From positions 6,216,127-6,280,126 of the forward strand of contig OW804100.1 in NCBI GenBank assembly GCA_942159475.1: a DNA stretch of 64,000 nt, written 5' to 3'. This stretch comes from Sthenelais limicola. Its lineage: Eukaryota; Annelida; Polychaeta; Phyllodocida; Sigalionidae. Positions 3,194 to 63,563 of this stretch are shown one piece after another (within the stretch, counting starts at the first letter, position 1; every line of letters starts with the position of its first letter). Both the position numbers and the translations under genes were made by a program. The notes under the pieces are model-generated. The model saw nothing but the letters and a program-made list of their open reading frames with translations, was not told the DNA's origin and did no database searches.

Positions 3194-3660
3194 TGGAAGA
3201 CCATTTACCCATATACCGAACTTCGGTTATCCGAATTGGATCAATTCGGCCAAAACTCGGCCAAAACCCGGCCGAGTTTTGGCCGAAACTCGGCCGAATT
3301 CGGCCGAAATACGGCATACGGCATACGGCATTCGGCAATCTTTTATGCTTAGATAACATACATATATATATGTGTATGTATGTATATATACATACACATA
3401 CATACATGTATACATACATACATACATACATACCTGACATACACACCTGACTCAGAAAATGATATAAAATGATTATGACAGTAGGAGACCAAATGTTGCC
3501 AAATTGGTGGAATTGGCCACATACACCATGATATACATACAATATATCATCCATACATACATGTATATATACCGCATACCATATATAACTAACATATAGT
3601 ATACATAATATACAGTATACATAACATACAGTATACATAACACATATATACATAACTCTG

Positions 3661-5401: not shown

Positions 5402-8347
5402 TCACCCAGGGGCTAGAAGGCACTCAGTGTATTTTCTAAAAGTCACTTTATTATCTATTTTATGGGCAACTGGCTTAAGGTCGTTCCATCTCGTTTGGCA
5501 TTTAAATATTACTGAATTGAGAATTTTATTGGATTTGGAGGAGAGAACATTGAGGTTTCTCTTCCCTTCAGCGTGGCTACGTGTTGGAAGCTTCCTCAAA
5601 TCAAGTGAAGTTTGGTCCTGAGCCATATAATACGCCATGTCTAAAATGTGCTTATCTCTTCTCAATTGTAATGGCCAAACGTTGAGCATTTTATGCTCTA
5701 GATCGACATTGTCATATCTTGATTTGTTGAATATAATACGTAAAGCTAAATTTTGCTGGGATTGCAATCGATTCAGGAGAGTTTTAGGGGCCGAGTCATA
5801 AATAAAATCACAAAAATCGAGGTTTGGCAAAATGGCCATCTTATATAAATCATGTTTCGCCTTCTGAGTTAAGGAGTCCCTAGCTCTGTAGAGGAGCCTA
5901 ACCTTTGAGGTAACAGTACTTAAAGTGGTATTAACATGGGGTTTGAATGTCAGGGTGTTGTCGAATAGGAAACCAAGGTATTTATATTCATGTACTTCCT
6001 CAAGCTGTGACGTCCCAAGAGTTAGGGTGGGGGTGGGGGAGGATTGAGATTTTGATTTTGAGTAGCTGCTAAGAGAAAATGACATTGATTTGCACTTAGC
6101 AACATTAAGTGAGATTTTATTCTCGATGCACCAGGAAGAAATACTATCGAGATCTTGCTGGAGATCGTGATTTAGTGTCTCAGCACTATCGCTGTGATGG
6201 AATATTACCGTATCATCAGCGTAGTGCTGAACATTGGCATGTTTTATAACAGAGTGTAAATCATTGATGTAAATAGTGAACAGGATTGGGCCTAAGATAG
6301 TCCCTTGTGGTACCCCGTAGGTGACCACCCCCTCATCTGACTTCAAACCATTGACAGTAACAAATTGCCTTCTGCCTGAGAGATAGTTCGAAAACCAAAG
6401 GAGCTCCATACCATTGATACCATAATGTTTTAATTTTTCTAAAAGCGTGGGATGATGGACCGTGTCGAACGCCTTTTTAAAGTCAAGATATACTGTTTTA
6501 TTTAATAGATTATTATTCAGGTTCGTGTAAATATTTTTAAGAAAATCAATCTGGGCTTGTTGTATGGAATGGTTGGTCCTAAATCCGTATTGTTGGTTAG
6601 AGAAGAGATTATGTGATTCAAAATAATTTGTTAGCTGTTGCTGAACCGCTTTTTCGAGGATTTTCGCCGGCATGGAGATGCAGGAGATCGGCCTGTAGTT
6701 ATTGGTATCAAGCTTACTACCTGCTTTATGTAAAGGGGTAACTCGAGCAATCTTGAAGGCATCAGGCACTCTCCCTAGTAAGAGGGAGATATTTACAATG
6801 TGAGTCATCTGGTCAGTCAGCGCTAAGAGACACGACTTTAAGATATTGGCTGGGAGATATTCAATCCCCGAATTCTTTGTGGCATCAATACCCGAAATTA
6901 TTTTTCTCATTTCCACTGAAGTCATTTCAGAGAAAGCAAATACCGAATTGTTAGGTACATTCAATATAGAAGAAGAGGAAGCGGGAGCAACACGGTTCCC
7001 ACCATCCTGTGTATCAGGGACATTGTCAGGGGTCGCTTGAATAATTTGGTTGGCTAGGCTGGGGCCTACATTCAGAAAGAATTTATTGAAAATATCTGGG
7101 ACTAAGGAATGGTCCAGTTTCTGCCCACCCTTTTCCAGGTGTATCGTATTATTTGTTTTCGTTTTGCCTGGACTGATTATTGGTCTAAGAAATTCCCAGA
7201 ATTTTCTGGGATTTTTATTGTGGAATTCTAAATTTGATTTGATAAAGTTGTCCTTAGCGGCTTTACATTGTCTATTGGCTTGGTGCTTTAAAATTTTAGC
7301 CTTACGTAGCATATCTGGGTCATTTAATAGTTTGGCTTTCCTAAATAATTTATCTCTTTCATTCATAGTACTTACTAGATCATCATTCATCCATTTAGGC
7401 TTTTCTCGTACAGATCTAAATTGCTTGATTGGACACATTCTATTAAGGTAATATTCTATGTTGTTGAGAAGTAATTCCCAGCAAGATTCAGGGTTAGAGT
7501 TCGAGAAAAAGGGGCCCCAGTCTAAATTCTTCAAGATTTCATTCAGTATTTTTTGGTCGAGAGATTTAGTATTTCTCGCCCAAAACGACTTGACATTGTA
7601 CCTATTGCGCATTCTCTTCCTGACTAGAAAAATAGGGAAATGATCTGAAATATTCAAATCAATTACTCCCGACTGGCTGACATGAGAAGAGTTAGAGTAA
7701 AAATGATCAATTATGGTCTCTGACTTTAGGGTGGAGCGAGTGGATTTCGTGATGTACTGGGTTAAAGAGAAGTTATTCATGAGATTCCTAATCTCAGAAG
7801 ATAAGAGAGTTTTTGAATGAGCAATTGTTTTGAAATCAAGATTAAAATCCCCCATCAAGAATATTTCCAAGGAGTTATTTAATTTAGAAAGTATGTCCTG
7901 AAGACTGGTAAGAAAAGTTTTGGTACATCCACTCGGGGGCCTATACAGGTTAAGAACAGTGCAGCATTTATTCATGCCTTTCTTAATTACTGCTATTTGA
8001 ACCTCAAGATCCTTATTAGATACATTGAGGTGCTTGTATTTGTCGGCATCCACCACTAGTTCAGATTTGAAGTACATACAGAGTCCTCCTCCCCTTCTCC
8101 TGCCAGCTCTATCCTGTCGGTATAATGTATAATCAGGGAGTTGTATACTATTATCATGAGTTCCTCCATTCAACCAAGTTTCACAAAAACCTAGCACATC
8201 AACACCGGAACCAGACGTGAGCAACTCAATTTGATTGAAATGACGAAACAAACTTCTAATATTCCATGAGATAAACTTAACTCCTTTAACCTTCTGCAAA
8301 TCATTGAAGGTGTGGAGGAGCTCACAGTTTTCTGTGTTCAAGTTCAT
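5402..8347 (-). CDS. LINE ORF2: APE endonuclease and reverse transcriptase, intact frame
   Basis: 981 codons without interruption. The N-terminal apurinic-type endonuclease has SWNIRSL (near residue 27), CETWLNGG, RRRGGGLCMYF, NLYRPPSG, MGDFNLDF (near 166) and the final NISDHFPIF. The reverse transcriptase has RVTPLHKAG, NNYRPISC, QYGFR, VYLDFKKAFDTV, YGVPQGTILGP (near 678) and the catalytic YADD (Y709), followed by the thumb region NLDFCDFIYDSA. Length and domain order are normal for CR1/Jockey-type ORF2. It nicks target DNA and reverse transcribes its own RNA from the nick. The chosen start leaves only a short leader before the endonuclease. With no stop codons or frameshifts, this is the youngest coding element in the window and may still be capable of activity. 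Confidence 0.95.
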   Translation of the reverse strand: MNLNTENCELLHTFNDLQKVKGVKFISWNIRSLFRHFNQIELLTSGSGVDVLGFCETWLNGGTHDNSIQLPDYTLYRQDRAGRRRGGGLCMYFKSELVVDADKYKHLNVSNKDLEVQIAVIKKGMNKCCTVLNLYRPPSGCTKTFLTSLQDILSKLNNSLEIFLMGDFNLDFKTIAHSKTLLSSEIRNLMNNFSLTQYITKSTRSTLKSETIIDHFYSNSSHVSQSGVIDLNISDHFPIFLVRKRMRNRYNVKSFWARNTKSLDQKILNEILKNLDWGPFFSNSNPESCWELLLNNIEYYLNRMCPIKQFRSVREKPKWMNDDLVSTMNERDKLFRKAKLLNDPDMLRKAKILKHQANRQCKAAKDNFIKSNLEFHNKNPRKFWEFLRPIISPGKTKTNNTIHLEKGGQKLDHSLVPDIFNKFFLNVGPSLANQIIQATPDNVPDTQDGGNRVAPASSSSILNVPNNSVFAFSEMTSVEMRKIISGIDATKNSGIEYLPANILKSCLLALTDQMTHIVNISLLLGRVPDAFKIARVTPLHKAGSKLDTNNYRPISCISMPAKILEKAVQQQLTNYFESHNLFSNQQYGFRTNHSIQQAQIDFLKNIYTNLNNNLLNKTVYLDFKKAFDTVHHPTLLEKLKHYGINGMELLWFSNYLSGRRQFVTVNGLKSDEGVVTYGVPQGTILGPILFTIYINDLHSVIKHANVQHYADDTVIFHHSDSAETLNHDLQQDLDSISSWCIENKISLNVAKCKSMSFSLSSYSKSKSQSSPTPTLTLGTSQLEEVHEYKYLGFLFDNTLTFKPHVNTTLSTVTSKVRLLYRARDSLTQKAKHDLYKMAILPNLDFCDFIYDSAPKTLLNRLQSQQNLALRIIFNKSRYDNVDLEHKMLNVWPLQLRRDKHILDMAYYMAQDQTSLDLRKLPTRSHAEGKRNLNVLSSKSNKILNSVIFKCQTRWNDLKPVAHKIDNKVTFRKYTECLLAPG

Positions 8348-29849: not shown

Positions 29850-29965
29850 TTTCGTAACCCAGTGTTATATATATATACATATTATTGTATTTTTATTCTG
29901 ATCACGTTCAATAACAATTACATCATCCAGAATTGGGATGGCTATCTCTGCCTTAGCAGGTCTAC

Positions 29966-30472
29966 TAGTGGGGCAGCTTAACCACATTTATGGATGATTT
30001 GGGGACGGAGCGGACAAAAGTACCAAATTTGGCATACAGGTACCTTTGGTGGTCCTCTTTCAAGTTAGAACCGGATCCAGCGCCACAGCATGCTGGATCC
30101 CCCTAAATCCAAGATGGCCGCCAGTCCACCTCTAAAAGGCCCCGAAATCCCCCTGAAGTTGCTATTTTATGACTTTTTATGTATAGATATAATGTTTTAT
30201 GATTTAATCATCCTTCTTAATCAAGGAAAATTACTTTCGTACAGTGCTTTATGTTAAAAATGTCTGAAAACACAAAAAAAACAAGATGGCTGCCAATATG
30301 GCTGCCATTTTTACCAATAAATCAGCATTAAGCAGAAGTTGGTTAATAATTGTCTGTTTCTTTAATGTGATACCTCATTTAGTGGTTTTGTGTGGGCAAT
30401 AAATCAATTGGGATCACTAAAAATGGAATTTGACAAGTATCCATGGAGATAGTGGTGCCCATGGTAACCAGG
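29966..30472 (+). repeat. Left terminal inverted repeat of the large transposon
   Basis: Contains GGGGACGGAGCGGACAAAAG, GGTTCTAACTTGAAAG (inverse), AAGATGGCTGCCAATATGGC and ends near GGTAACCAGG. It matches the right repeat along its length apart from scattered substitutions and a small indel near the tip. Confidence 0.9.
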
Positions 30473-30594
30473 GGTATATATATAGAGCATTTACAAACAA
30501 TAACACAATGTATATATCATGCTATATTGCTATTGCTATATTGTTATCATTTTTCCTTCTAAACTAATAAATAACTATTTTGACACAGGAAATT

Positions 30595-30785
30595 GTGTGA
30601 GAAAAAGCAAAGAAAACACAAAATGACTGCCAATATGACTGCCATTGACCTTGTGAAACAATTTTAGATGTGACTCTTTTAATAATTGTCCAATATCTAA
30701 ATATAATACCTCATTTTGTGTATTCTATGGTCAATCAATCAATGGAAATCTCTAAAATATGGTTAAAACCAGTATCCAGCATCAT
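30595..30785 (+). repeat. Subterminal diverged copy of part of the TIR
   Basis: AAAACACAAAATGACTGCCA, AATAATTGTC and ATACCTCATTTTGTG follow the order of the inner half of the left TIR (30260-30440). This indicates an old tandem duplication next to the transposon end. There is no counterpart at the right side. Confidence 0.6.
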
Positions 30786-31116
30786 ATGTTTATGAACACA
30801 CAGCACAAGGCAGACAATATCCTATTTACTCATCATAAACAGTTGATTCACCCATCATTTATGTAAGCTGTCCACAATATATATAGGTGGGCTCCACAAA
30901 TTAGGGCCCAACAAGGATAGGGCCCAAAAACCTTGGACGTTAGGGCCCAAAGTCTAGACGTTAGGGCCCACCCACATTCAGATGTCAGGGTCCACCCACC
31001 TTCAGATATTAGGGCCCTTGGCTGATTCTAGGGTAAGCCGTAACGTCTGCAAGTGGGTGGGCCCTAACGTCCAATGGGGGATGGGCACTAACGTCCGATG
31101 GGGGATGGGCCCTAAC

Positions 31117-32347
31117 CAGGGATGCAAGTTCTCAGATTATTGACTGAATTCAGATATATGGAAAAGTCAGCAAATGTCCCATACTATGATAGAACCTCAC
31201 GAGTAGGTATTATTAGCAATAGGATTGCATGGGTCAGAGTCAAATCTTTTCCATGGCAGCACTGTTATGTGAAAAGATTTGACGAGGACCCATGCAATCC
31301 TATTACTAATAATACCTACGAGTTGGGGTTCTATTTTTACTCCATGATGATAAAGGAAAATATGTCAAAATAACAGTTGACAGATTGGAAATATGACTGT
31401 CCTCACTTTAATAGTCAGCTTGGAGACAGGCGGGGAGACAGGTAGACCTGGTGTAACTTTTGGTCAATTTTTGATCGATTTTCTATGTAAACATTTGTCA
31501 TTACAGAACAATGGGACTTACAATTATTGTAAACTAAACTATCCCCTTACAGAATCTAGTTTCATTTAATAAATGATGTACCTAGGAGCTAGAGAAGCAG
31601 TGGAAACGACAGCCAAGGTTTCCATGAAACAAAACTTCATTTCACAGGAAGTAGAACAAATGGCTGTTCCTAAAAGCTCCCCCCTCCCTCCGGTGTATCA
31701 GTGAGATGCTATGTAACAGCATAGCAAAAGGAGGGAGGGAGTTTGCATGGTAGCAAACCGGAAACATGCTGCTGGGTTGCATGTAATCCTACACACATGA
31801 TTACACAGTAGGATTACACTCCCGCCCATACAAACTGCGGTTTATCCTCCCTTCATCATGGTGTAAAAGACACTAAATTGACTCATAAATGCCAAAATTT
31901 TCCCAAAATCTCATTTGACAATATTGTTGTTGATCATCTTGTGTTACCCCAACAAATGTAGGCAGTTTGAGTAGAGGTTGTACACACGCCATAAGGGAGT
32001 GATGTGTAGAGACCTCTATCTAAGTGTTCTCATGGGCCCTAGTGCTATCGGAGGCGACCTCAGTTAATATCTGAAGTGAGATTCCAGATATTTCCGTTAG
32101 TCTTTAGCATTGAGTCAATGGAGCTCACGGAAATCCCTGAGTGCCTTCGCTCAAGAACTCGGGAATGGTGCAGCAGGTGGCGATCTTATATACACCCCTT
32201 GGACTGACCTAGATACCCACCGGTAGTTACGCCACACTGCCCTACAAACACACATGGTCCTTTATATGACATGTGCGCCTTAATGTACCTCCCCTTGGAC
32301 CTTGTAAAATGATCAGATTATTTTACCATACCCAACTTGCATCCCTG
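31117..32347. mobile_element. hAT-like non-autonomous transposon with 6-bp target duplication
   Basis: Ends CAGGGATGCAAGTT and AACTTGCATCCCTG are perfect inverted repeats of 14 bp. CCTAAC flanks both sides (31111-31116, 32348-32353), and removing the element plus one copy restores the FB-2 repeat. CAGGG tips are typical of hAT elements; 6 bp is shorter than the usual 8. The interior has a long hairpin (31199-31325) and a second palindromic zone around 31675-31745, but no transposase. Confidence 0.8.
31199..31325. repeat. Internal hairpin of the hAT-like element
   Basis: Arms of about 50 bp, GAGTAGGTATTATTAGCAAT and its inverse ATTACTAATAATACCTACGAG-type end, around a loop of about 20 bp, with few mismatches. 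The 83-residue plus-strand frame here only reads this palindrome. Confidence 0.8.
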
Positions 32348-32537
32348 CCTAACGTCTGAAGGTGGGTGGGCCCTAACATCTGATGATAGTAAAATTTATT
32401 TTTGCAAGAAGTTAGATACAATAGCTACATATACAAGTAAATATTTCAGATGATATGGCCCATGCACCCTTCCTCAGATGCTAGGGCCCAGCTGGGATGG
32501 GTCCTAATGTCTGATAGAGTACTTATTTGATAGTTTC

Positions 32538-33969
32538 ATGTTCAAAAAAGAAGATTTTGAATTCAATGGTACATTTGCACCAGGCTGTCAACAAAAGTAC
32601 ATACCCTCCATGTTAAAAACACTGGTATCTATGCGATATACAAGACCAAGATGCATCAGAACATCAGCCAACTCTTGCAATATCACAGGTGATTTCATTC
32701 AACAGCAAAAGAAACTTCAAATCAAATGTCAAACAGCGCCACAATTTAATACATGAACAGCCTCTGCTACTCTATGTTGGTCTCAGCCTACATACCCAAA
32801 CCAGATCCAAGACTTTGGTATCCGAGATGTACAACTTTGGTTTCAGTGTCAGCTATGACCAAATTTTGGAATTTGAGTCATAGCTGGGCACTGCTGTCTG
32901 CATGAAAGCAGTTCAAAATGGTGTAGTCTGTCCTCTACAACTCCGCCGTGGCCTAGTCACAGACGGGGTCTTGGACAACCTGGACCATAATCCAACTAGT
33001 GCTACTGCAAAGGGGGCCTTTCATGGAACTGGAATCAGTGTTTTCCAGCAGCCCACTTAAAAAAAAATGGGCAAAGAACAAGAGCCAATATCTTTAGCTG
33101 ATATAACAAAGTCAAGTTACTTATTACCTGACAGCTACTGCCTCGTTCCAGCTGTATCTTTCTCCAAACTAACTGTTGGGCCAAGGCAGCCAAAGAACAA
33201 CTATCATCACTTTACAATGGATATGAATGATGCAATAACTGATGAGCAGAAATGGTTGAGTACTACATCTGTTCTTCTTGGAAAATCAGATTTAGAGAAG
33301 GAAGTTGTGGTAGCTTGGGCTGCATATCATGCTGCACATCAGACTGAACCTGCCGAGCTAATAAAACCAGCTATTAGTCAACTACTACCTCTCTTTAATG
33401 AAAAGGCAGCAACAAGGGCTATGGTAAAGCATGGCCTTGATATCCTGAGAGATTTAACTGAATTTTTAAATCCACGACAGATTCCAGTGATGACAATGGA
33501 TGAACCCTTGTTTGCATTAGGCAAGTATATTCAGTGGAAATGGCCAGAGGTTTATGGAGAGGACAGGTATGTTTTAATGTTAGGTGGTCTACACATTGAA
33601 ATGGCCATCTGGAGGACAGATTTTCTAGATGGTTCAGGCTGGACGACAGCATTTCTGGAAGCTGGTGTTACTACAACTGGTACTGCCAACTCATTTCTCC
33701 ATGCCGCACATCTCACCAAAACCAGACAATCTCACCAGATAAGTGCACTGGCCCTAGCCATGCTACAGGAAAAAGCCTTCATGCAATCTGGTCTCCCACA
33801 AACTGAAGAAGGTTGCAAAAGTTGGAAGGAGATGATGTCTTCTGAAAGCCCTACATTTCGGTACTTTGACACAGTGTTGAATCTGGAACTCAAAGGACTG
33901 ATATTTGTAAGAGCCCATCATGAAAAGAACTTTGCCCTGTATGTACAAAGTCTGAAAGCCATCGCACCA
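32538..33969 (+). pseudogene. Large-transposon protein, N-terminal half (decayed, then open)
   Basis: I recognise a multicopy, uncharacterised protein family common in invertebrate genomes. 32538-32680 reads FEFNGTF and MLKTLVSM. After frameshifts, 32689-32880 gives LLLYVGLSLHTQTRSKTLV and FGFSVSYDQILEF. After a stop come GVVCPLQLRRGL, LDNLDHNPTSATAKG and FHGTGISVFQ; another stop lies just before 33067. The frame is then open at 33067-33969 (MTMDEPLFALGKYIQWKWP, LMLGGLHIEMAIWRTDFLDG, HLTKTRQSHQISALALAML, VRAHHEKNFALYVQSLKAIA). At that point a LINE interrupts it, and the rest resumes at 38070. The clearest conserved block, GGLHIEMA...DGSGW...G...TANSFL, has no assigned function that I know of. 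Confidence 0.75.
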
Positions 33970-36900
33970 AAAAAGGCCACCTTAACTCCTACTCTAAATT
34001 AGCACCCGATGGATGCCATATTACGGAAGTGTGTGCTGACCACTGGGCCTACAAGCTATATAAAGCATGTGATCAGCTTTAAACAAGTCAACTCCCCGCA
34101 TATATTACTTATCTATAATAATTCGCCCCTTTTGTTGAAGACGGGCTATTTAAATAAATAATAGTAATATACTTCAGCCAATACTGAAATAATGAACTAT
34201 CTACCAATAGATGTCACACGGATGCCTAAGAAAGTTAACTATGAGTGATACATACATATTTCAGCGCTGGAACGAAGGTCGGTGACAATATACTTATATC
34301 TTTTTAACTGGTGCTACAGATTAGATACGAAGACCCCCAAAAAACTCTCATTACTAGACCGCGGCAATCTACCCTTGCCTACCAAAGACACTGACATTTT
34401 TCCCATTGACATTTTTTCCCATGATCTTTTAAAATTCCCAATTACATACCGATTCATTCATTCAATATTATTATTCAAAATGTACACCCTCTGTGCATAT
34501 GAATGTTTATGTGTTCTAAATGAATAAAACCCTGTGATAATCAGAAAACAACTGATATGATTACTGATCGTACCTTAGTATTAAGCATATATATTATACA
34601 TAACCTAACTGTGATACTCATATTTCCCTACATTCCTGACTAAACCCTATGGCAGAATCCTCTATTGAACAGATAGAGAATCTCGCCACTGCTAAGGGTT
34701 TCAGGATTGTTGAGTTAAATATAAGAAGCCTCATGAAAAACCATGAGGAAGTTGAAACTTTTCTATTTAAAACCAAGGTTGACATGCTGCTGCTGTCGGA
34801 GACATGGCTATCAGATAGGATGACTAACACCCAGGTATATGTTCCGGGTTATGATCTCTATAGACTGGATAGAATGAGTGGGAAGTCAAAGGGAGGTGGC
34901 CTGGCAGTATACGCACGTAATGATATTGATATAGACTGTAATGAATACTCAAAATTGAATAAAAGTGACAAAAATATTGAAATACAAGTCCTAAAAAATC
35001 ATGATAGCAAAAATAAAATAAAGGTTTTCCTAAACCTGTACCGCCCTCCTAGTGGCCAATATCAATTAGCACTGGAAACACTCCAGGCAACCCTTGATGC
35101 TATCCCCCCTAACCATGAAATTTATTAACTTTAAACTATTAACTTTAATGACAATACAACAATGAGTAACAAACTCAAAAAGCTATCCCAAACTAACCAA
35201 CTGAAACAATACATTATTGACCCTACCAGAACCACCTCCTCCACTTCCAATACTCTTGACCACATTTACTCAAACTCCAAATTCATAGCCTCAACAGGAG
35301 TCTTAAACCTAAATATTTCGGACCACAAACCCACCTTTCTCATAAGAAAAAAACAAAAACAAAAGCACACTAAAATTTCTTTTGAATCAAGAAGCTACAG
35401 AAATTTTGACGAAAACATATATCTGGAAATTCTGAGAGACCATAACTGGAACAAGTATTACTCCATGAGAGACCCAAACGAATGCTGGACATATTTTGAA
35501 CATTTTATTCTACAAATACTAGACAGGATGTGTCCAGTAAAGGAATATACAAATGTTAATGCCAGATGTGACTGGCTAACAGCCGACCTATTTATTTTGA
35601 TGAAACAGCGAGACCAATACTTTAAACTAGTGAACAAACACAAATCCCCAGACCTTCTTGATAGAGCAAAAAATCTGAGAAAAGAAGTAAATAAGCTAGC
35701 GAAAAACTTAAAAAACAATTACATCCAGGAGAAACTGGAAGAATGTTCTGATGACCCCCATAAGTTCTGGGAAAAGGTTAAACCCTTAATAAACCCAGAC
35801 AAAATCCATTCAAACGAAAATATAATCTTAAAAGAAAATGGGGTCATTCTAGACCCTGAAAAAATCCCTGATTGCTTCAATGAGTTCTTTATCTCTATAG
35901 GACAAAACCTAGCAGAGAAAATCCCCCCTTTAGATGAAGAGGAACATAAAACATATCAAAGAAATTCAACCAATGACACCCCTCCACCACCTAACTTCTC
36001 CTTCGGACAAGTGGATGTTGAAACTCTCAGAAAAATTATAAACAACCTTTCAAACTTCAAATCCTCAGGCCTACGACATTTAAAAAGTAGTTTGCTTAAG
36101 AAGGTGCTTCTCTCGCTGATCCAGCAATTTAAATACATAATCGAGCTCTCTCTGACTACTGGTATTGTTCCAATGAAGTGGAAGATGGGAAAGATTACCC
36201 CACTATTTAAAGCAGGCGATAGAGCAACTCCTGGTAATTATCGACCCATTTCTACCATTTAGCTTCCTGCAAAAGTATTGGAGAAAGTTGTGCAAAAGAA
36301 ATTAATGTCTCACCTAGAAGACAATAATATTCTAACACCAGATCAGTATGGATTTCGATCGGGGCTCTCAACTGGTGATGCAGTTGTCTCTTATTTGAAT
36401 GATGTATACAAAGCTCTAAATGACAAATCAAACTGTCATGCAGTCTACTTGGACTTCCGGAAAGCCTTCGATACAGTAGATCACAAAATTTTATTAGAAA
36501 AATTAGATAAAATAGGACTAAAAAATATGGAACTCAACTGGTTCCACAACTATCTATCGGATAGGACCCAAACTGTTTTTATCAACAATAAACTATCCAC
36601 ACCAAAAACTGTGGTATGTGGAGTTCCTCAAGGAACTACCTTGGGGCCGATATTATTTCTAGTCTATATAAATGACCTACCCATACATATCAAGCCTACT
36701 AATATCCAACTATTTGCAGACGATACCATCCTGTCACAATCAGACAAAAATCTAGACAAACTATCCCACCTTATACAAAATGACTTGAATAATGTACTAT
36801 TATGGTGTAGAAGAAACAAAATTTCACTGAATGAAGACAAATCGAAGGTCACAACTTTCCTTGAGAAACCTTCCCGGAGGTCCAAGTGGAAAAACGAATC

Positions 36901-38069
36901 CTCTGCTTACAAACTAAACTTAGCTGGTATCATGTTAGAAGAGGTTGATGATTACAAGTATTTGGGAACTATCGTCGACGGTTCCCTAAAGTTCAATAAA
37001 CATCTCGCCTCAATCAAAAAGAAAATATCGTACAAACTTTGGCTACTGAAACACCTGAGGGGTAGGCTAAACCAAAATCTAAGCGCACAAATCTACAAAA
37101 CTTCTATTTTACCCTTATTTGACCAATCAGATATTTTTCATGATTCAGCTGCCAAGACCAAATTAACTGCCCTACAAATTCTCCAAAATAAAGCCTTAAG
37201 AATTATCACCAAAAGTAATAAATATCAATGCGTAATGCACTTCCACCAGAGGTTCGGCCTACTCCCCCTTAAGCAGAGGAGGAGGCTGCACTTACTCCAA
37301 CAATGTTACAGGATGAGAGCCCTGACTGAATATATTGACAATAGAATATTACCCACCAGACAACACCAGCCAGATCGTACTGTTTTTAAATGCCCCTTAC
37401 CAAAAAGCGAACTTATTAGAAACTCTATATATTACAAAATCCCTTTATACTGGAATAACCTTGATACAAGATTACAAAATTTAGATACCCCCAAAAAATT
37501 CGCAAAACAAGTAAAACCCCTCCAAATCTGGAGAGACATTGATTTCTTATACTGATTCAAATACTCCGCTAGAGGACTAACTCCAAGATATATATATATA
37601 CATGTATTGGATGACCCTCTGAGGAGTGATCCATGTCCCCGACAGCATCAGCAGCAATAGCAACAACAACAACAACAGTAAATACAAAAAAACTAGTTCA
37701 TACTCTTAGCCCGGCCCACATGGCGGGTATAAGAACCTTGTACATAAAAAAGACCCAACACGGATTGTTCCCAGTGATGGGCAACTATATAAATATTGAA
37801 TTGTAGAACCATAAGTATAGAATGACCATGAGTCAAATATAGAACTTATGTTTATATAAATCTATATTACCATCTAGCAAATTGAATCTACAAATGACAC
37901 CAAAACTTCGAGGGCCACCTTTGAGGCGTTGACTCACTGGTGGACTGTTCCCTCAAGCATATTGTAAATTTTATATCCAGCACGGCACGTACATCTCCTA
38001 AATTAATGGAGTAGCCCGGCTGACGTAATCAGTTTTGATAAATAAAAGTATAACAAACAAACAAACAAA
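33970..38069 (+). mobile_element. CR1/Jockey-group LINE inserted in the transposon gene (LINE-2)
   Basis: The boundaries are set by the interrupted protein: reading stops making family sense after ...SLKAIAP and resumes at WFFALNHQNY, directly after an ACAA tetramer tail (about 38050-38069). The element is about 4.1 kb: a 0.68-kb leader, ORF2, and a 0.5-kb 3' region with a CAA array and an AATAAA motif before the tail. No ORF1 is present, so it may be 5'-truncated. No clear target duplication could be read because the tail is low complexity. Confidence 0.85.
34649..37555 (+). pseudogene. LINE-2 ORF2: endonuclease/RT with three nonsense codons
   Basis: Three open segments (34649-35128, 35162-36262, 36278-37555) are all in the same phase. 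They are interrupted only by TAA at 35126 and 35132 and by TAG at 36260. Endonuclease motifs are VELNIRSLMK, SETWLSDR, KSKGGGLAVYAR, NLYRPPSG and LNISDHKPTF. The GDFN box falls exactly where the first two stops lie and is destroyed. RT motifs are ITPLFKAGD, NYRPIST, QYGFRSGLSTGD, VYLDFRKAFDTVD, CGVPQGTTLGP and LFADD, then the thumb SILPLFDQSDIFHDSA. About 969 codons overall, normal for the family. Point mutations without indels suggest a fairly recent death. Confidence 0.92.
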
Positions 38070-40157
38070 TGGTTCTTTGCTCTGAACCATCAGAACTATA
38101 CCAGATGGATTCCAGTTCATCTTCATGACATGGAACACTTGCCGCCATCCATCTTGAACAAGTTTATGGAGGAGGCCCAATGGGTTGTACAGAAGACAAA
38201 AAATTGATTCTCAGCCATGCCAATCGACCAGGCCCATGACCAGAATAATGAGAGAGTAAAGGGTGGTAGAGGTGCAGTTGGTTTAACCGAGAACCCAGTA
38301 GTGGATGCTCGCAGGCCCAGAGCAAACAAGAATATTGGAGGAATTTCAAAACTCTCTCTCAAGTGATCAGCATGATATCGGTAAGCATCATGAAGAAGGA
38401 CCAAAGTTTCAAGCTGACTTTAAGAAGGAGGCTCTTGATTTAGTTAGAGCAATGGAAAGTATGGGAAATCCCTTTCTAAACAACACAGTTGATCTACTCA
38501 CCTTAGACAACCATCTGGTTATGAATGATGCAGTTGTGAATACTATCAACACTATTGAAGAAATTGGTAAAACACAGTATGCTCACTACTACCAGAAATA
38601 CCTTGTTGACCGTTCAGGCTTCTTTCATGAATCAATCAAAAGGGAACTCCTTGCCAACCTTTCAATCCAAGGGAGAAATCAAAATAGCAAATCAAAACAG
38701 GTGGCTGCTTTGAAAAATGATTGTGACCTCTTTGCTAAACTCTTCATTGTTGCACAACAGAAAAAGTGGACATGGATGACCTGTTTTCATATGAGAACCA
38801 CCAAGCTCCCCCATCTGTATTTGATGATGACAATTTGTACCTACCTGGTGGAAAAAGTGAGTTACTGAAGTGTTTTGATGGAATGAATGTTATTCAAGTG
38901 GATGCACCTTACTCTTTTGACATGGGAGTTTTTGACGGAGGTCTTCTACATACCCTGGCCCCAAAACAAGTAACTACATTCAGAGAGTACAGCAATGACA
39001 TATTTCTCCCATATGTAAGACAAAAACTAAGTGCATTGACAAGATTGGACTGGGTATGGGATTCTTACTTTGAAGGCAGTATCAAAGAGTCCACTCGACA
39101 GAGGAGAGGGCAAGGCACTGGAACAAGGCGCAAGGTTAGTGCAGAGAAGAGAATACCTGGCAACTGGGACAACTTCCTCAAGGAACCTGGTAATAAGATG
39201 GAGCTGGCTAATCTTTTAACTGAATCTGTAATGAAAATGGAGATTTCTGCAAACAAGGAAATAGTTTTCACAAATGATCAAGAGGTGCTCTGCAGTGACC
39301 AAAACCACACAATGCCGGCATCCAATCACAAGGAAGCTGATACAAGGATGTTATTACATATCCATGATGGCTTGAATAATGGATGTTGCTCCATCTATGT
39401 CCGTACATGTGACACTGATGTTGTAGTTCTTTTGATTGGAAAGTTGAACGAGCTCCTTCAAACAAATCCAGACGCTGATATCTGGGTGGGCTTTGATACT
39501 GGAAAAAGTTATAAAGATCTTCATATCAACTCCATCTGCAACAGTCTTGTGCCAGATAAATCAAAGTCACTGCCATTCTTCCATTGTTTCACAGGGTGTG
39601 ATACAGTCTCTGCCTTTCATAACAAGAGGAAAGTGTCTGCATGGTCGGCATGGATGGCCTTCCCAGATGTCACTGAAGCTTTTCTGCACTACATGACCAA
39701 TCCGTTTGCTGATGTCCAAGATGACAGTGAACATTTCAAACAGTTGGAGAGATTTGTTATAATCATGTATAAGAGAGACTGTGAAGAAGAATGCATCAAT
39801 GCAGCAAGGAGGCTTCTGTATTGCCAAGGTACAAGCAAATCCCTTCTGCTAATACCACTTATCAAAGGTGCCTTGGTGGAGCATACAAAGAGAACCTTGT
39901 TGCAAGGTGGTATCTATGCACTTTCCGTGGAACATGCTCCAAACATACCATCTCTTGAAGGCATGGGCTGGTCATGGGACAATGATGAAGAATGCTGGAT
40001 GCCTTGGTGGTCACTATTGCCTGTGTCATCACCAGAAGTGGCAAATCTTCACAAATGTGCCTGCAAAACTGAGAAGGGATGCGAAAGCAATAGATGTAAG
40101 TGTAACTCCAACAAAAAAGCATGTACAGCACTGTGTACATGTCCATGTAACAAATGA
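38070..40157 (+). pseudogene. Large-transposon protein, C-terminal half: PIN/XPG-like region plus CXC module
   Basis: Resumes at WFFALNHQNYTRWIPVHLHD, with a TGA in KTKN*FSAM. One frameshift lies near 38290 before RWMLAGPEQTRILEEF and another near 38763 in an A-run. The final 463-codon frame (38766-40157) is intact. It has HKEADTRMLLHIHD (from 39328), RTCDTDVVVLLIGKL (around 39411) and FHCFTGCDTVSAFHNKRK (around 39588). These acidic boxes are spaced like those of PIN/XPG-type nucleases. The C-terminus CACKTEKGCESNRCKCNSN and the following ACTALCTCPC form a tesmin/TSO1-type CXC module, which in other proteins binds zinc and DNA. Together with 32538-33969, the ancestral protein exceeds about 1,170 residues, apparently intronless. 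Nuclease function is inference. Confidence 0.8.
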
Positions 40158-41166
40158 AGTTGAATGGCTGTAATTGACCATGATCTCGCCATTGAATTGT
40201 GCAATATGTAACACAAGTCTTCAAGGAAAATACCAAAGTACAGTGACTAATTATCTTCACATACTTATATTTATTGAGACCACAATTATTGGTTGATTGA
40301 AAGTTTGATTCTATGTCTTAACAAATAAGATGATTATTGATGCTGTATTGTGGATTATTATACACGCATTCAATACTGAGGCCCCGACAGCCGCTCATTA
40401 CTTGTAACGTGGTATTGGACTAGTACATTACCGGCGCATTGTCATGGCGACACAAGTTTGGTGGCGCAAGATTGCTGACGCAAGTTTGCCGGTGTGCGAG
40501 GGCTTTCTTCCTCCATCATTTCAACTGTTTCTAGTTATATTCCTCTTGTATGAAAACCAGATATGGTAAATTATGTTAATATCTTTTTAATTAAGCATGT
40601 TTTACATGCAAAACTAGGCATGTATAATAATCAACTTATAGGACTCGTTGCCGCACGGACGCGTAAATAAAGGACTCGATCTCCGATCTCGTCCTTTATT
40701 TACGTGCCGTGCGGCAACGAGTCCTATAAGTGCTAAATATAGGATGTTTCTTTCAATAACAACAGTCACAAAATATTGTTCAACAAAGGTCTTAATTACC
40801 TTTCAATACAGCTTCAATTATAGTCAGTTCATACAATTATTGAAATAAGATAAATCTGCTAAAATGTGATAATCATAGGCTTACAAGCAATAAAGTTTCA
40901 TATGCAGTAAAAGGTAAATGGACAAAATATCTCAATCATTCATAACTATTCGATATATGTTCATTAAAGATCCTTGAAAATTAATTTGTGCAACTGTCTT
41001 GTATGTTGATTATTTTTAAGCATCATTTTGATGATAAAAAAAATAATTAAAGTTTTACTGACCATTGACACATGCCTTGAAATGCCAGAGTAATACAACA
41101 CAGGAGTGATCCAGAACAAGTATATTACTGATGAATGCGGTTCAAGATCATTCATAATTACATAAT
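40158..41166. other. 3' region of the large transposon
   Basis: Non-coding apart from foldback FB-1 copy 2 (40353-40731). It runs to the inner edge of the right TIR without further frames. Confidence 0.5.
40353..40731. mobile_element. Foldback element FB-1, copy 2
   Basis: GATTATTATACACGC and GCATGTATAATAATC bound the outer part (40353-40632), followed by the hairpin CTTATAGGACTCGTTGCCGC (40634-40731). Same order as 21739-22011, but with about 100 bp more between GCAAGTTTGCCG and the second outer end. Confidence 0.75.
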
Positions 41167-41662
41167 CCTGGTTACCATGGACACGACTATCTCCATGGAT
41201 ACTTGTCAAATTCCATTTTTAGTGATCCCAATTGATTTATTGCCCACACAAAACCACTAAATGAGGTATCACATTAAAGAAACAGACAATTATTAACCAA
41301 CTTCTGCTTCATGCTGATTTATTGGTAAAAATGGCAGCCATATTGGCAGCCATCTTGTTTTTTTGTGTTTTCAGACATTTTGACATAAAGCACTGTACGA
41401 AAGTAATTTTTCATTGATTAAGAAGGATGATTAAGTCATAAAACATTACATCTATACATAAAAAGTCATAAAATAGCTACTTCAAGGGGATTTCTGGGCC
41501 TTTTAGAGGTGGACCGGCGGCCATTTTGGATTTAGGGGGATCCAGCATGCCGTGGCGCTGGATCCGGTTCTAACTTGAAAGAGGACCACCAAAGGTACCT
41601 GTATGCCAAATTTGGTACTTTTGTCCGCTCCGTCCCCATCCAAACCCTAAGCTGCCCCACTA
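41167..41662 (-). repeat. Right terminal inverted repeat of the large transposon
   Basis: Inverse of 29966-30472: CCTGGTTACCATGGACACGA through CTTTTGTCCGCTCCGTCCCC and ending GCTGCCCCACTA. Outside it is TAC. Confidence 0.9.
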
Positions 41663-41874
41663 TACCTGGTGCAACCCAATTAGTTCCTTACAAGTTATTT
41701 TACCTTCATAAGAACACGAAAGCGATGTGCACTTGTTTTGTTGGCCGGATCATTATTAATAGTACAATATATTAACATCTACCCGTACCATCATTATGTA
41801 CCATCACTTGAAATTATCAGATTTTAATTTAGAAGGGCCACCAGGAAGATCACCAGTGGTGAGGGCTGTGTCCT

Positions 41875-44764: not shown

Positions 44765-47240
44765 CATTTGTCCCAAATTAGTGATAACAAAATATTCTGG
44801 CAACAAGTTCAAAAACTATTACCAAAAAAATCTAACAACACTGGGAATGAGATAAACATAGTTGACAGCACCACTACCCGTCCAGTTAAAAAAGAAATGA
44901 CCGCTGATTATTTCAATTGTTATTTCTCCACTATTGGAGAAAAATTAGCATCAACAGTGCATGATAATTGGCAGTTTTAAGGCGACAAGCCAAACTGCTC
45001 CATTGAGGTAATTACCACAACCACTGAAGAGGTTCTGAAATCTGTTAAACTGATTGACTGCAACAAAAGCAGCAACATAAAAGATTTAAAAACAACAGTA
45101 ATTAAGAAGCACTCTTGGTGCTACCTGAGCTGCTAACTCATATCCTAAATTGCATATTCAGAAGTAGCGAGATTCCAGCAAACCGGAAGATAGGCAGTGT
45201 CACACCTCTCTTTAAAGGAGGAGATCCCTCTCAGATCACAAATTATAGACCCATTACCCAATTACCAATTCAAGCTAAACTACTGGAAAAAATTATCCAC
45301 AATAGATTGATAAATTATTTCGAGGAAAATAACTTGTCTCCAAACCAAAATGGTTACAGAACAAACAGATCCACCATGGATACTGTATCTGATTTAACAG
45401 ACGATATTAGAATTGGCAGAAATAGTGGCTGTTCAACTGCATCAGTTTTCTTTGACTTAAAGAAAGCCTTTGATACAGTCAACCACAAGACTATAGGAGA
45501 TAAGTTAAATATTTATGGTGTTAATGGCTCCCTACTGTCTTTATTGAAAAACTACCTAACTGACAGAAAACAGATAAGTATTTGTAAAGATGTAATTTCA
45601 TCACCACACGATATAGCCTGTGGAGTCCCACAAGGATCCATATTAGGTCCTTTGCTCTTTCTTATATATGTAAACGATGTGACTTCTTGTCTCAAACACT
45701 GTAAAGTCAAACTATTCGTGGATGACACTGTCATTTATGTATCGGGCAAGGAAATAGAGACCATAAATGAAAGATTACAACAAGATTGCACGAACTTCCA
45801 GTCCTGGTGCACCAAAAACAAATTATCCCTTAATGTAGGCAAAACTAAGTCAATGTTATTCTTTGGCAACAATGCAGAGATAAACATATCCTTGAACGAA
45901 CAAGAAATTCAGAGTGTTCTAAATTATAAATACCTGGGGATCATCCATATAATATAAAGCTAGAGCGATTTCTAGGAAAGGAGGTAGAAAAGAAATGGTA
46001 GAAAGAAGGTTTTCTTTGTCCGGAATGTTCTCGGAATTTGTTGAATTACAAACTACTTTACTCATCTGTAGATGTCAATCCCCCCTCTCTGGATGTCGTC
46101 GTATGTGGTTTGTGAGGGTATTTGGGGTGGAAATGTGGTTTTGAAGCCTTTTTAAAATTGCGATCTCTTCACTCTATTTATAGCCTGGGAAAGACCCTGT
46201 GAGATACTACGTCATTTCCCACAACCTACGTCCAGGGGGACCTAACTATAAGTGACCAGCCAAACAGAAGGGGACCCCAGGGTCAAATTTTCCAATTTGG
46301 GTTTATTATAGATTCTGAATCTGCATGTCCCCCTGGAAAATAGTTGAAAAGTCCCAGAATTTGAAATATGGGCTTTTTTGTAAAGTTATGTGAGTTTTCA
46401 GTAGATGCTCTCAAATAGGTTGGGGGAGTGACTCATTTTCCTGTGACACATCACATGTACAAAAAATAAATATCAAAAAATTGGTTTTGGTTTAAATGAC
46501 AGCGATGTACAGAAGGGGAAATGAGCATTATAAAAGGGAAATCGGAGATGGGGTTGGGAGAGAAAAACAGGTATGAAAGTCAGAGAAGAGGGGGAGGGAA
46601 AAGAGGGAGAGGGGGAAATGTGGGGAGAGAGGGGGACCGTCCGGAGGACGGGTACTTTTCTAGTACTAGATAAGAATCTAACTTTCAAAGACCAAGCATT
46701 ATACACAATAAAGACTACTTCTCATAAGTTATACCTTCTGAGAAGAATTGCAAGGTTTCTACCATCACTTGTCCTCCAAAGGGTGTACAAGGTGTATATT
46801 TTGCCAATTCTGGATTATGGTGACCTATTGTATGACACCAATGTTGTAAAACATCTGAACAGACTGCAAATCATTCAAAACAAATGTATAAAGATAGCAC
46901 TTAAAGTACACATGAGAAGCCTTACCATGTTAATTCACGGAATTATTAATGTACCATTACTTTGTGACAGAAGGAAAACACATCTGCTACAATTTGCTTA
47001 TAGAAGAAGTAGAAAAGAAATATACATTGATCAGAGAGGAGGCAGAACGAGACAATGGAATGCTCCTGTATTAAAAATTGAAAAACCAAAATTGACTTCA
47101 TACAAAAGCAGTATACAATTCAGAACAGCCTCTTTATGGAATAATACCGCAGCTGATGTTAGAAATATTCAAACATATGAAGCATTTAAAATATTAACAA
47201 AACAAGAATCCCTTATTCCAATGTACAATTTGTAACAGCA
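44765..47240 (+). pseudogene. LINE-3 reverse transcriptase, 5'-truncated and split
   Basis: Plus-strand relic with no endonuclease. 44770-44980: IFWQQVQKLLPK and TADYFNCYFSTIGEKLAS, then a TAA and a frameshift near 45110. 45115-45946: SVTPLFKGGDPSQITNYRPI, NQNGYRTNRST, VFFDLKKAFDTVNH, ACGVPQGSILGPLLFLIYVN, catalytic FVDD (usually YADD; the first two positions are F and V) and LNYKYLGI. The frame is cut there by about 0.7 kb of foreign sequence and resumes near 46660 with LDKNLTFKDQ, VYKVYILPILDYGDLLYDT, LQIIQNKCIKIA, then SLWNNTAADVRNIQTYEAFK, ending at 47232. YLGI and LDKNLTF would be adjacent in an uninterrupted element. Confidence 0.85.
45950..46658. mobile_element. Unclassified insertion inside LINE-3
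   Basis: About 0.7 kb separating two RT segments that should be contiguous. It includes a purine-rich block (46530-46635) and a CCGTCCGGAGGACGG palindrome near the right edge. No clear TIR or target duplication and no frame. The exact borders are uncertain by a few bases. Confidence 0.55.
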
Positions 47241-62924: not shown

Positions 62925-63563
62925 GCGCCACGACCTATACCTCCAAAAAGAGGTTTGGCGGTCTGACGATCACCCGGTGCGAAACCCGGAGGAACAGCTG
63001 GTGCTACGCGCAAAGCTCTGTTGAACTTCAACAGAAACGGTCCACGTTATTGAGAGGCCTGTAGGTCTCTGCGATATCCACACAGAAGCCTTCCAGTGAC
63101 TCTTGTAGAGCCAGCCGGAGGACCGCTGCGCGATCAGCCACCACCTTCTGGGTGCGAGCGATGCCTACCCGGTCGACCTCGGGTGGGGGTACCCTTGCGG
63201 TAGCCGCAGGCCGTGACGGACCAGGCTGGGGGTCTGGCACGGGCGCCACAACCTATACCTCCAAAAAGAGGTTTGGCGGTCTGACGATCACCCGGTGCGA
63301 AACCCGGAGGAACAGCTGGTGCTACGCGCAAAGCTCTGTTGAACTTCAACAGAAACGGTCCACGTTATTGAGAGGCCTGTAGGTCTCTGCGATATCCACA
63401 CAGAAGCCTTCCAGTGACTCTTGTAGAGCCAGCCGGAGGACCGCTGCGCGATCAGCCACCACCTTCTGGGTGCGAGCGATGCCTACCCGGTCGACCTCGG
63501 GTGGGGGTACCCTTGCGGTAGCCGCAGGCCGTGACGGACCAGGCTGGGGGTCTGGCACGGGCG
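62925..63563. repeat. Tandem duplication of 318 bp, essentially identical copies
   Basis: Copy 1 at 62925-63242 and copy 2 at 63243-63563 match base for base over the parts I compared, differing at the junction (CCACGACC against CCACAACC). On the minus strand each carries the same frame (PDPQPGPSRPAATARVPPPE ... YRPLNNVDRFC) ending in a stop. Confidence 0.92.
63028..63249 (-). pseudogene. Duplicated C-terminal segment of LTR-element frame, copy 1
   Basis: About 70 codons, VPDPQPGPSRPAATARVP, VGIARTQKVVADRAAVLRLA and LQESLEGFCVDIAETYRPLN, ending NNVDRFC-stop. It is the second exemplar of the same tail because of the 318-bp duplication; being downstream of a stop codon, it should not be translated as part of the main frame. 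Confidence 0.45.

What the first reader, a model, noticed from the sequence alone, without database searches (positions are those of the whole stretch)
29966..41662. A large long-TIR transposon whose cargo is a PIN/XPG-like, CXC-domain protein
Seen: inverted repeats of about 500 bp with matching TAGTGGGGCAGCTTA tips, TAC outside both tips, and one intronless plus-strand gene between them. The gene has acidic boxes (HKEADTR, CDTDVVVL, TGCDTVSAF) and a C-terminal CXC cysteine module. Known from memory: this protein family is present in many copies in invertebrate genomes and is usually annotated only as uncharacterised. Inference: it is the mobility protein of this transposon class, possibly a relative of Academ, rather than a host gene. 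A family assigned to a transposon by its own terminal repeats would explain its large copy numbers.
Basis: partly seen in the sequence, partly recalled or inferred. Interest (0 to 1): 0.88.

Follow-up and report, generated by a model that had tools for sequence, protein, structure and literature searches.

The report
Jumping gene with two DNA-cutting domains
This is a damaged copy of a large animal DNA transposon whose single protein carries both a transposase engine and a flap-nuclease-like domain, and it most likely belongs to the known Academ group.

Summary
The observation largely holds. Window 29966-41662 has ~515-bp inverted repeats with matching 15-bp tips and a TAC duplication. The gene inside, however, is broken: a 4.1-kb non-LTR retrotransposon splits it, protein residues 1-313 have no match, and the frame is disrupted. 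It is one of many copies: the repeat gave 47 genome matches, and 15 of 19 places I fetched carry gene sequence.

An intact copy encodes 1497 aa. AlphaFold models of relatives show a DDE transposase core like P-element, Hermes, Transib and RAG1, and an EXO1/FEN1/XPG fold with a full set of invariant acids, followed by a CXC cysteine module. Target duplications are exactly 3 bp in 11 of 12 elements with both tips, including two families only 35-45% identical. One array preserves a self-insertion: right and left ends joined to one interior site with a 3-bp duplication.

Best fit: AcademX, a known lineage with a nuclease and 3-4 bp duplications; no named Academ protein was available for comparison. 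New here: DUF6589 placed in a transposase core, the two-nuclease model, and the self-insertion fossil. Empty-site search did not complete.

The parts
29966..41662 (+). whole transposon, 11,697 bp including a later retrotransposon insertion
   Evidence: matching tips, long inverted repeats, TAC outside both
29963..29965 (.). target-site duplication TAC, left copy
41663..41665 (.). target-site duplication TAC, right copy
29966..30480 (+). left terminal inverted repeat
   Evidence: 47 genome matches
41159..41662 (-). right terminal inverted repeat
32538..33969 (+). gene piece, protein residues 314-797 in two frames: first part of the DDE transposase core
   Evidence: tblastn with the intact protein P0001; fold by model of relatives
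33970..38069 (+). non-LTR retrotransposon inserted in the gene; fragments with endonuclease and reverse transcriptase
   Evidence: RVT_1 E 2.8e-32, Exo_endo_phos E 2.9e-4; absent from other copies; joins compared with the intact copy
38070..38766 (+). gene pieces, residues 798-1034 in two frames: rest of the DDE core with the conserved E
38850..39965 (+). EXO1/FEN1/XPG-like nuclease domain (approximate limits, transferred from the model of P0047 residues 571-935)
40056..40154 (+). C-terminal CXC cysteine module
   Evidence: conserved cysteines C1465-C1495, approximate placing

Best explanation
A defective copy of an animal DNA transposon of the AcademX type. The intact element encodes one protein of about 1,500 aa. 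Shown at sequence or model level: two N-terminal C2HC-type cysteine/histidine sets, a DDE (RNase H-like) transposase core with a helical insertion, an EXO1/FEN1/XPG-fold domain with a full set of invariant acids, and a CXC cysteine module. Inferred: the zinc-type modules bind the long terminal repeats; the DDE core cuts the 3' ends and joins both to target DNA with a 3-bp stagger; the FEN-like domain processes the 5' strands or flaps. Gene-damaged copies can still be moved in trans because they keep the repeats.
Against: No named Academ protein was compared. Foldseek alone reached no E of 0.001 or less for either model, and no PDB match came by sequence. L045 has no matching duplication. 4 of 19 repeat places gave no gene sequence. 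The relative at C6:116767035 showed no repeats in the flanks fetched. No paralogous empty site was obtained. No activity is shown.
Confidence: 0.86

Rival explanations
1. The gene is cargo or a captured host gene and a protein encoded elsewhere moves the repeats.
For: 4 of 19 fetched repeat places lack gene sequence; gene-broken copies L033-L036 spread recently, so they are moved in trans.
Against: The protein itself has a transposase fold with an invariant D-D-E; gene and repeats stay together in families at 35-45% identity.
Confidence: 0.05
2. A transposon superfamily of its own, not Academ, that happens to pair a DDE core with a nuclease and makes 3-bp duplications.
For: No sequence comparison with a named Academ protein was possible; the XPG type of the Academ nuclease is recalled, not read (papers not held).
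Against: DDE core, nuclease and 3-bp duplication match what a held paper says of AcademX.
Confidence: 0.12
3. The FEN-like domain does not cut element ends but binds DNA structures or helps repair the gaps after insertion.
For: Transposases of the hAT and P groups work without such a domain (recalled); nothing here shows cutting.
Against: The seven acids in the order of the FEN1 active site are kept in 51 of 51 proteins, as expected for an active nuclease; this does not say on which substrate.
Confidence: 0.4
4. The C9 array arose by ordinary tandem duplication plus a chance inversion, or is an assembly error, and says nothing about transposition.
For: About 650 bases of the inverted stretch and most of the units' interiors were not read; assembly errors in long tandem repeats are common (general knowledge).
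Against: Both joints lie exactly at the element tips and at one interior site with a 3-bp overlap, and the period, 6,371 bp, is the element length 6,368 plus 3.
Confidence: 0.12

Closest known systems
AcademX lineage of the Academ superfamily
   Same: DDE transposase, a nuclease, 3 or 4 bp target duplications (PMC10045372, passage); bivalve Academ elements average 5,565 bp (PMC10294476, passage)
   Different: No named Academ sequence compared; whether known AcademX has the CXC module, C2HC sets or ~500-bp repeats was not checked
AcademH lineage
   Same: Same superfamily if the filing is right
   Different: 9 or 10 bp duplications and a helicase; here 3 bp and no helicase match in Pfam scans of P0001 and six homologues
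P element, hAT (Hermes), Transib/RAG1 transposases
   Same: Fold of the DDE core with a helical insertion before the last E
   Different: They lack a FEN-like domain and make 8- or 5-bp duplications (recalled)
KolobokP
   Same: Animal DNA transposon pairing a DDE transposase with a second nuclease; tandem multimers inside one duplication (PMC9587614, passages)
   Different: Long direct rather than inverted repeats; separate His-Me nuclease gene; 3-5 bp duplications
EXO1/FEN1/XPG nucleases
   Different: About 12% identity over the aligned part; here fused behind a transposase core

Membership tests
AcademX (Academ superfamily) | DDE-type transposase | tested here: met
   fold of the core and conserved D464/D467, D639, E854
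AcademX (Academ superfamily) | encodes a nuclease (XPG type, recalled) | tested here: met
AcademX (Academ superfamily) | 3 or 4 bp target duplications | tested here: met
   3 bp in 11 of 12 elements with both tips
AcademX (Academ superfamily) | sequence relationship to a named Academ transposase | not testable with these tools
   no named Academ protein among the names shown; the defining papers are not held
AcademH | 9 or 10 bp duplications | tested here: not met
   3 bp
AcademH | helicase domain | tested here: not met
   no helicase match in P0001 or six homologues
KolobokP | long terminal direct repeats | tested here: not met
   repeats are inverted
PIF/Harbinger | 3-bp TWA target (recalled) | tested here: not met
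   duplications include TCC, TAC, GTA and CCT
hAT or P | 8-bp duplications (recalled) | tested here: not met
   3 bp, although the core fold resembles both
FEN1/XPG nuclease fold (domain) | fold and seven-acid order | tested here: met
   acids matched by order and spacing, not by superposed active sites

The most novel reading that the evidence does not exclude
One polypeptide makes both strand cuts: the DDE core cuts and joins the 3' ends and the FEN-like domain cuts the 5' strands, so the element leaves as free double-stranded DNA. When it inserts into itself it makes an inversion circle that recombination can recapture into tandem arrays, as at C9:6133933-6153042. It would be a single-chain animal counterpart of the split cutting by TnsA and TnsB in Tn7 (recalled), with a natural fossil of self-insertion.
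Probability: 0.3. Interest if true: 0.72.

Novelty: new member of a known kind. Interest (0 to 1): 0.52.

Why it matters
A multi-copy 'uncharacterised' animal protein, and part of a Pfam family without a function (DUF6589), are tied to a transposon through its own ends, so such gene models can be recognised as transposon-derived. The two-nuclease protein gives candidate catalytic residues for each domain in a little-studied superfamily. The self-insertion array is sequence evidence, independent of the flanking duplications, that both ends join a target in a concerted way with a 3-bp stagger.

Tried and rejected
No PDB match by sequence or profile; Pfam gave only weak or marginal DUF6589 matches. 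Foldseek alone was weak; the structural second look was clear. Viral contigs gave no relative. Rejected: host gene or cargo, KolobokP, AcademH, Harbinger (table). Against a uniform picture: L045 lacks a matching duplication, 4 of 19 repeat places lack gene sequence, and the relative at C6:116767035 showed no repeats in 2.1 and 1.7 kb of flank. Cut-and-paste and a circular copy-out route were not distinguished. The paralogous empty-site search did not complete.

Full report
Observation. The repeat search shows the inverted arms reported. Reading the sequence and aligning the two ends gives tips TAGTGGGGCAGCTTA at 29966 and its complement ending at 41662, TAC outside both, then about 20 bp (left) or 10 bp (right) that differ, then a match of roughly 460-480 bp at 96-97%. 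The plus-strand gene is broken in this copy. tblastn with the intact protein places residues 314-345 and 350-797 at 32538-33969, 798-875 at 38070-38303, 879-1034 at 38302-38766 and 1003-1497 at 38667-40154, in several frames; residues 1-313 have no match in the window. Between 33970 and 38069 sits a non-LTR retrotransposon (RVT_1 E 2.8e-32) that other copies lack; the joins were read against the intact copy.

Copies in the genome. The window lies in a 1.13-Gb assembly of 161 contigs; the left repeat gave 47 matches, with 40 of 64 candidates scored, so this is a lower bound. I chose 20 regions covering 19 places. Gene pieces occur in 15 of 19; L043, L044, L048 and L049 gave none within the DNA fetched. 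Both repeats are visible in 10 of 19 (L031-L037, L038/39, L045, L050) and all 10 contain gene sequence. L036 (right end truncated) and L050 (left end not at the tip) were left out of the duplication count. With the window and three elements examined later (L051, the C9 array, C2), 12 have both tips; 11 of 12 show a duplication of exactly 3 bp and L045 shows none. The chance of a 3-bp match is about 0.018 per element from the window's base composition. L031-L036 share a gene lacking its C-terminal part; L033-L036 are 99.5-99.7% identical, and L033, L034 and L035 each carry their own duplication. Gene-broken copies therefore spread recently, presumably moved in trans.

Relatives. The protein search of the genome returned 103 matches with 92 of 1,537 candidates scored. 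I examined the ends of three more distant groups. A 45% relative (C6:33453300, L051) has a 1,484-aa frame, repeats of about 440 bp at 84%, tips TAGTAGGGCAGCTTA and an AAT duplication; it is 6,366 bp long. The C9 array belongs to the same family. A 35% relative at C2 has repeats matching at 83% over 330 bp, tips TAGCAGGGGAG and TAGCGGGGGAG, and a TTT duplication. A third, at C6:116767035, showed no repeats in 2.1 and 1.7 kb of flank.

The protein. One copy (L038/39) has an intact 1,497-aa frame. A search of 5.8 billion proteins listed 100 homologues, of which most carry no source name; named ones come from Synaphobranchus, Aldrovandia, Myxine, Amphimedon and Nymphon, plus one 'Sedimenticola' metagenome bin. 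In the 51 proteins of 1,400-1,570 aa (P0001 included) two sets of acids are conserved in at least 50 of 51: D464, D467, D639, D817, D850, E854, and D1091, D1129, D1133, E1224, D1226, D1250, D1252, D1313. Conserved cysteines and histidines make two N-terminal C2HC-type sets and a C-terminal CXC module. Pfam sees only part of DUF6589, over the stretch that carries E854, above the curated cut-off in 4 of 7 full or partial proteins scanned. DUF6589 gave 45 matches in this genome and none in 14 control genomes.

A fossil of self-insertion. At C9:6133933-6153042 an element of the L051 family, 6,368 bp by its tips, is followed by two units of 6,371 bp, all inside one CCT duplication. After the right tip of the first element and again after that of the first unit, the sequence runs directly into the element's interior from position 3281 of L051, reading backwards. 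In the first unit the backward stretch was read to position 934 and, after about 650 unread bases, at its end, where the left tip is joined to position 3279 reading forwards. Positions 3279-3281 occur at both joints, a 3-bp duplication, and 6,371 is 6,368 plus 3. The left-tip joint was read in the first unit only. This is the structure of an inversion product made when both ends of an element attack its own interior, as described for Sleeping Beauty and piggyBac (PMC3952818, passages). Recapture of such a circle by recombination with a resident element would give the array; that step is inference. The C9 target lies in a frame resembling tyrosine recombinases (PF00589, E 5e-4, below Pfam's cut-off) that stays open across the joined flanks.

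Mechanism. Shown: repeats, 3-bp duplications, a transposase fold and a nuclease fold in models, invariant acids in both, self-insertion joints. Inferred: that the DDE core makes the 3' cuts and joins, that the FEN-like domain treats the 5' strands or flaps, and that the zinc-type and CXC modules bind DNA.

Known or new. A held paper states that AcademX makes 3 or 4 bp and AcademH 9 or 10 bp duplications and links this to nuclease and helicase (PMC10045372, passages). That the AcademX nuclease is of XPG type is from memory; the paper on the two lineages (Kojima 2020) is not held. On the features tested the element fits AcademX. In the held library, no paper contains 'DUF6589', and the five papers holding Academ-, XPG, transposon and superfamily are on other subjects by title (listing only). 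Searches were seen as listings, with passages read from nine papers; none described natural inversion circles of this group in what I saw. The finding is a new member of a known kind, with a clearer anatomy than 'uncharacterised'.

Noticed in passing
G000:C9:6133933-6153042 (L052-L057, L062): Array of one intact element and two 6,371-bp units with the left part inverted, joints at the element tips with a 3-bp duplication: reads as a recaptured self-insertion circle.
   Followed up: partly
window 33970-38069: Non-LTR retrotransposon with a short AAAC-rich tail inserted in the transposase gene; no clear target duplication at its joins.
   Followed up: partly
window 5402-8347 (-) and 45115-45957 (+): Two more reverse-transcriptase frames; the first, 981 aa, also has an endonuclease domain.
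   Followed up: no
window 31203-31319 and 30957-32385: A 49-bp near-perfect inverted pair and several copies of a TAACGTC-containing repeat inside the element, in a stretch partly missing from other copies.
   Followed up: no
window 62925-63563: Two tandem copies of a 318-bp unit at 99% match.
   Followed up: no
G000: DUF6589 matches with 408-aa frames score well above those in long intronless frames, suggesting another DUF6589 lineage in this genome, perhaps with introns or a different partner domain.
   Followed up: no
protein P0056: A homologue named as from a Sedimenticola metagenome bin on a 6-kb contig; probably animal DNA in a bacterial bin.
   Followed up: no
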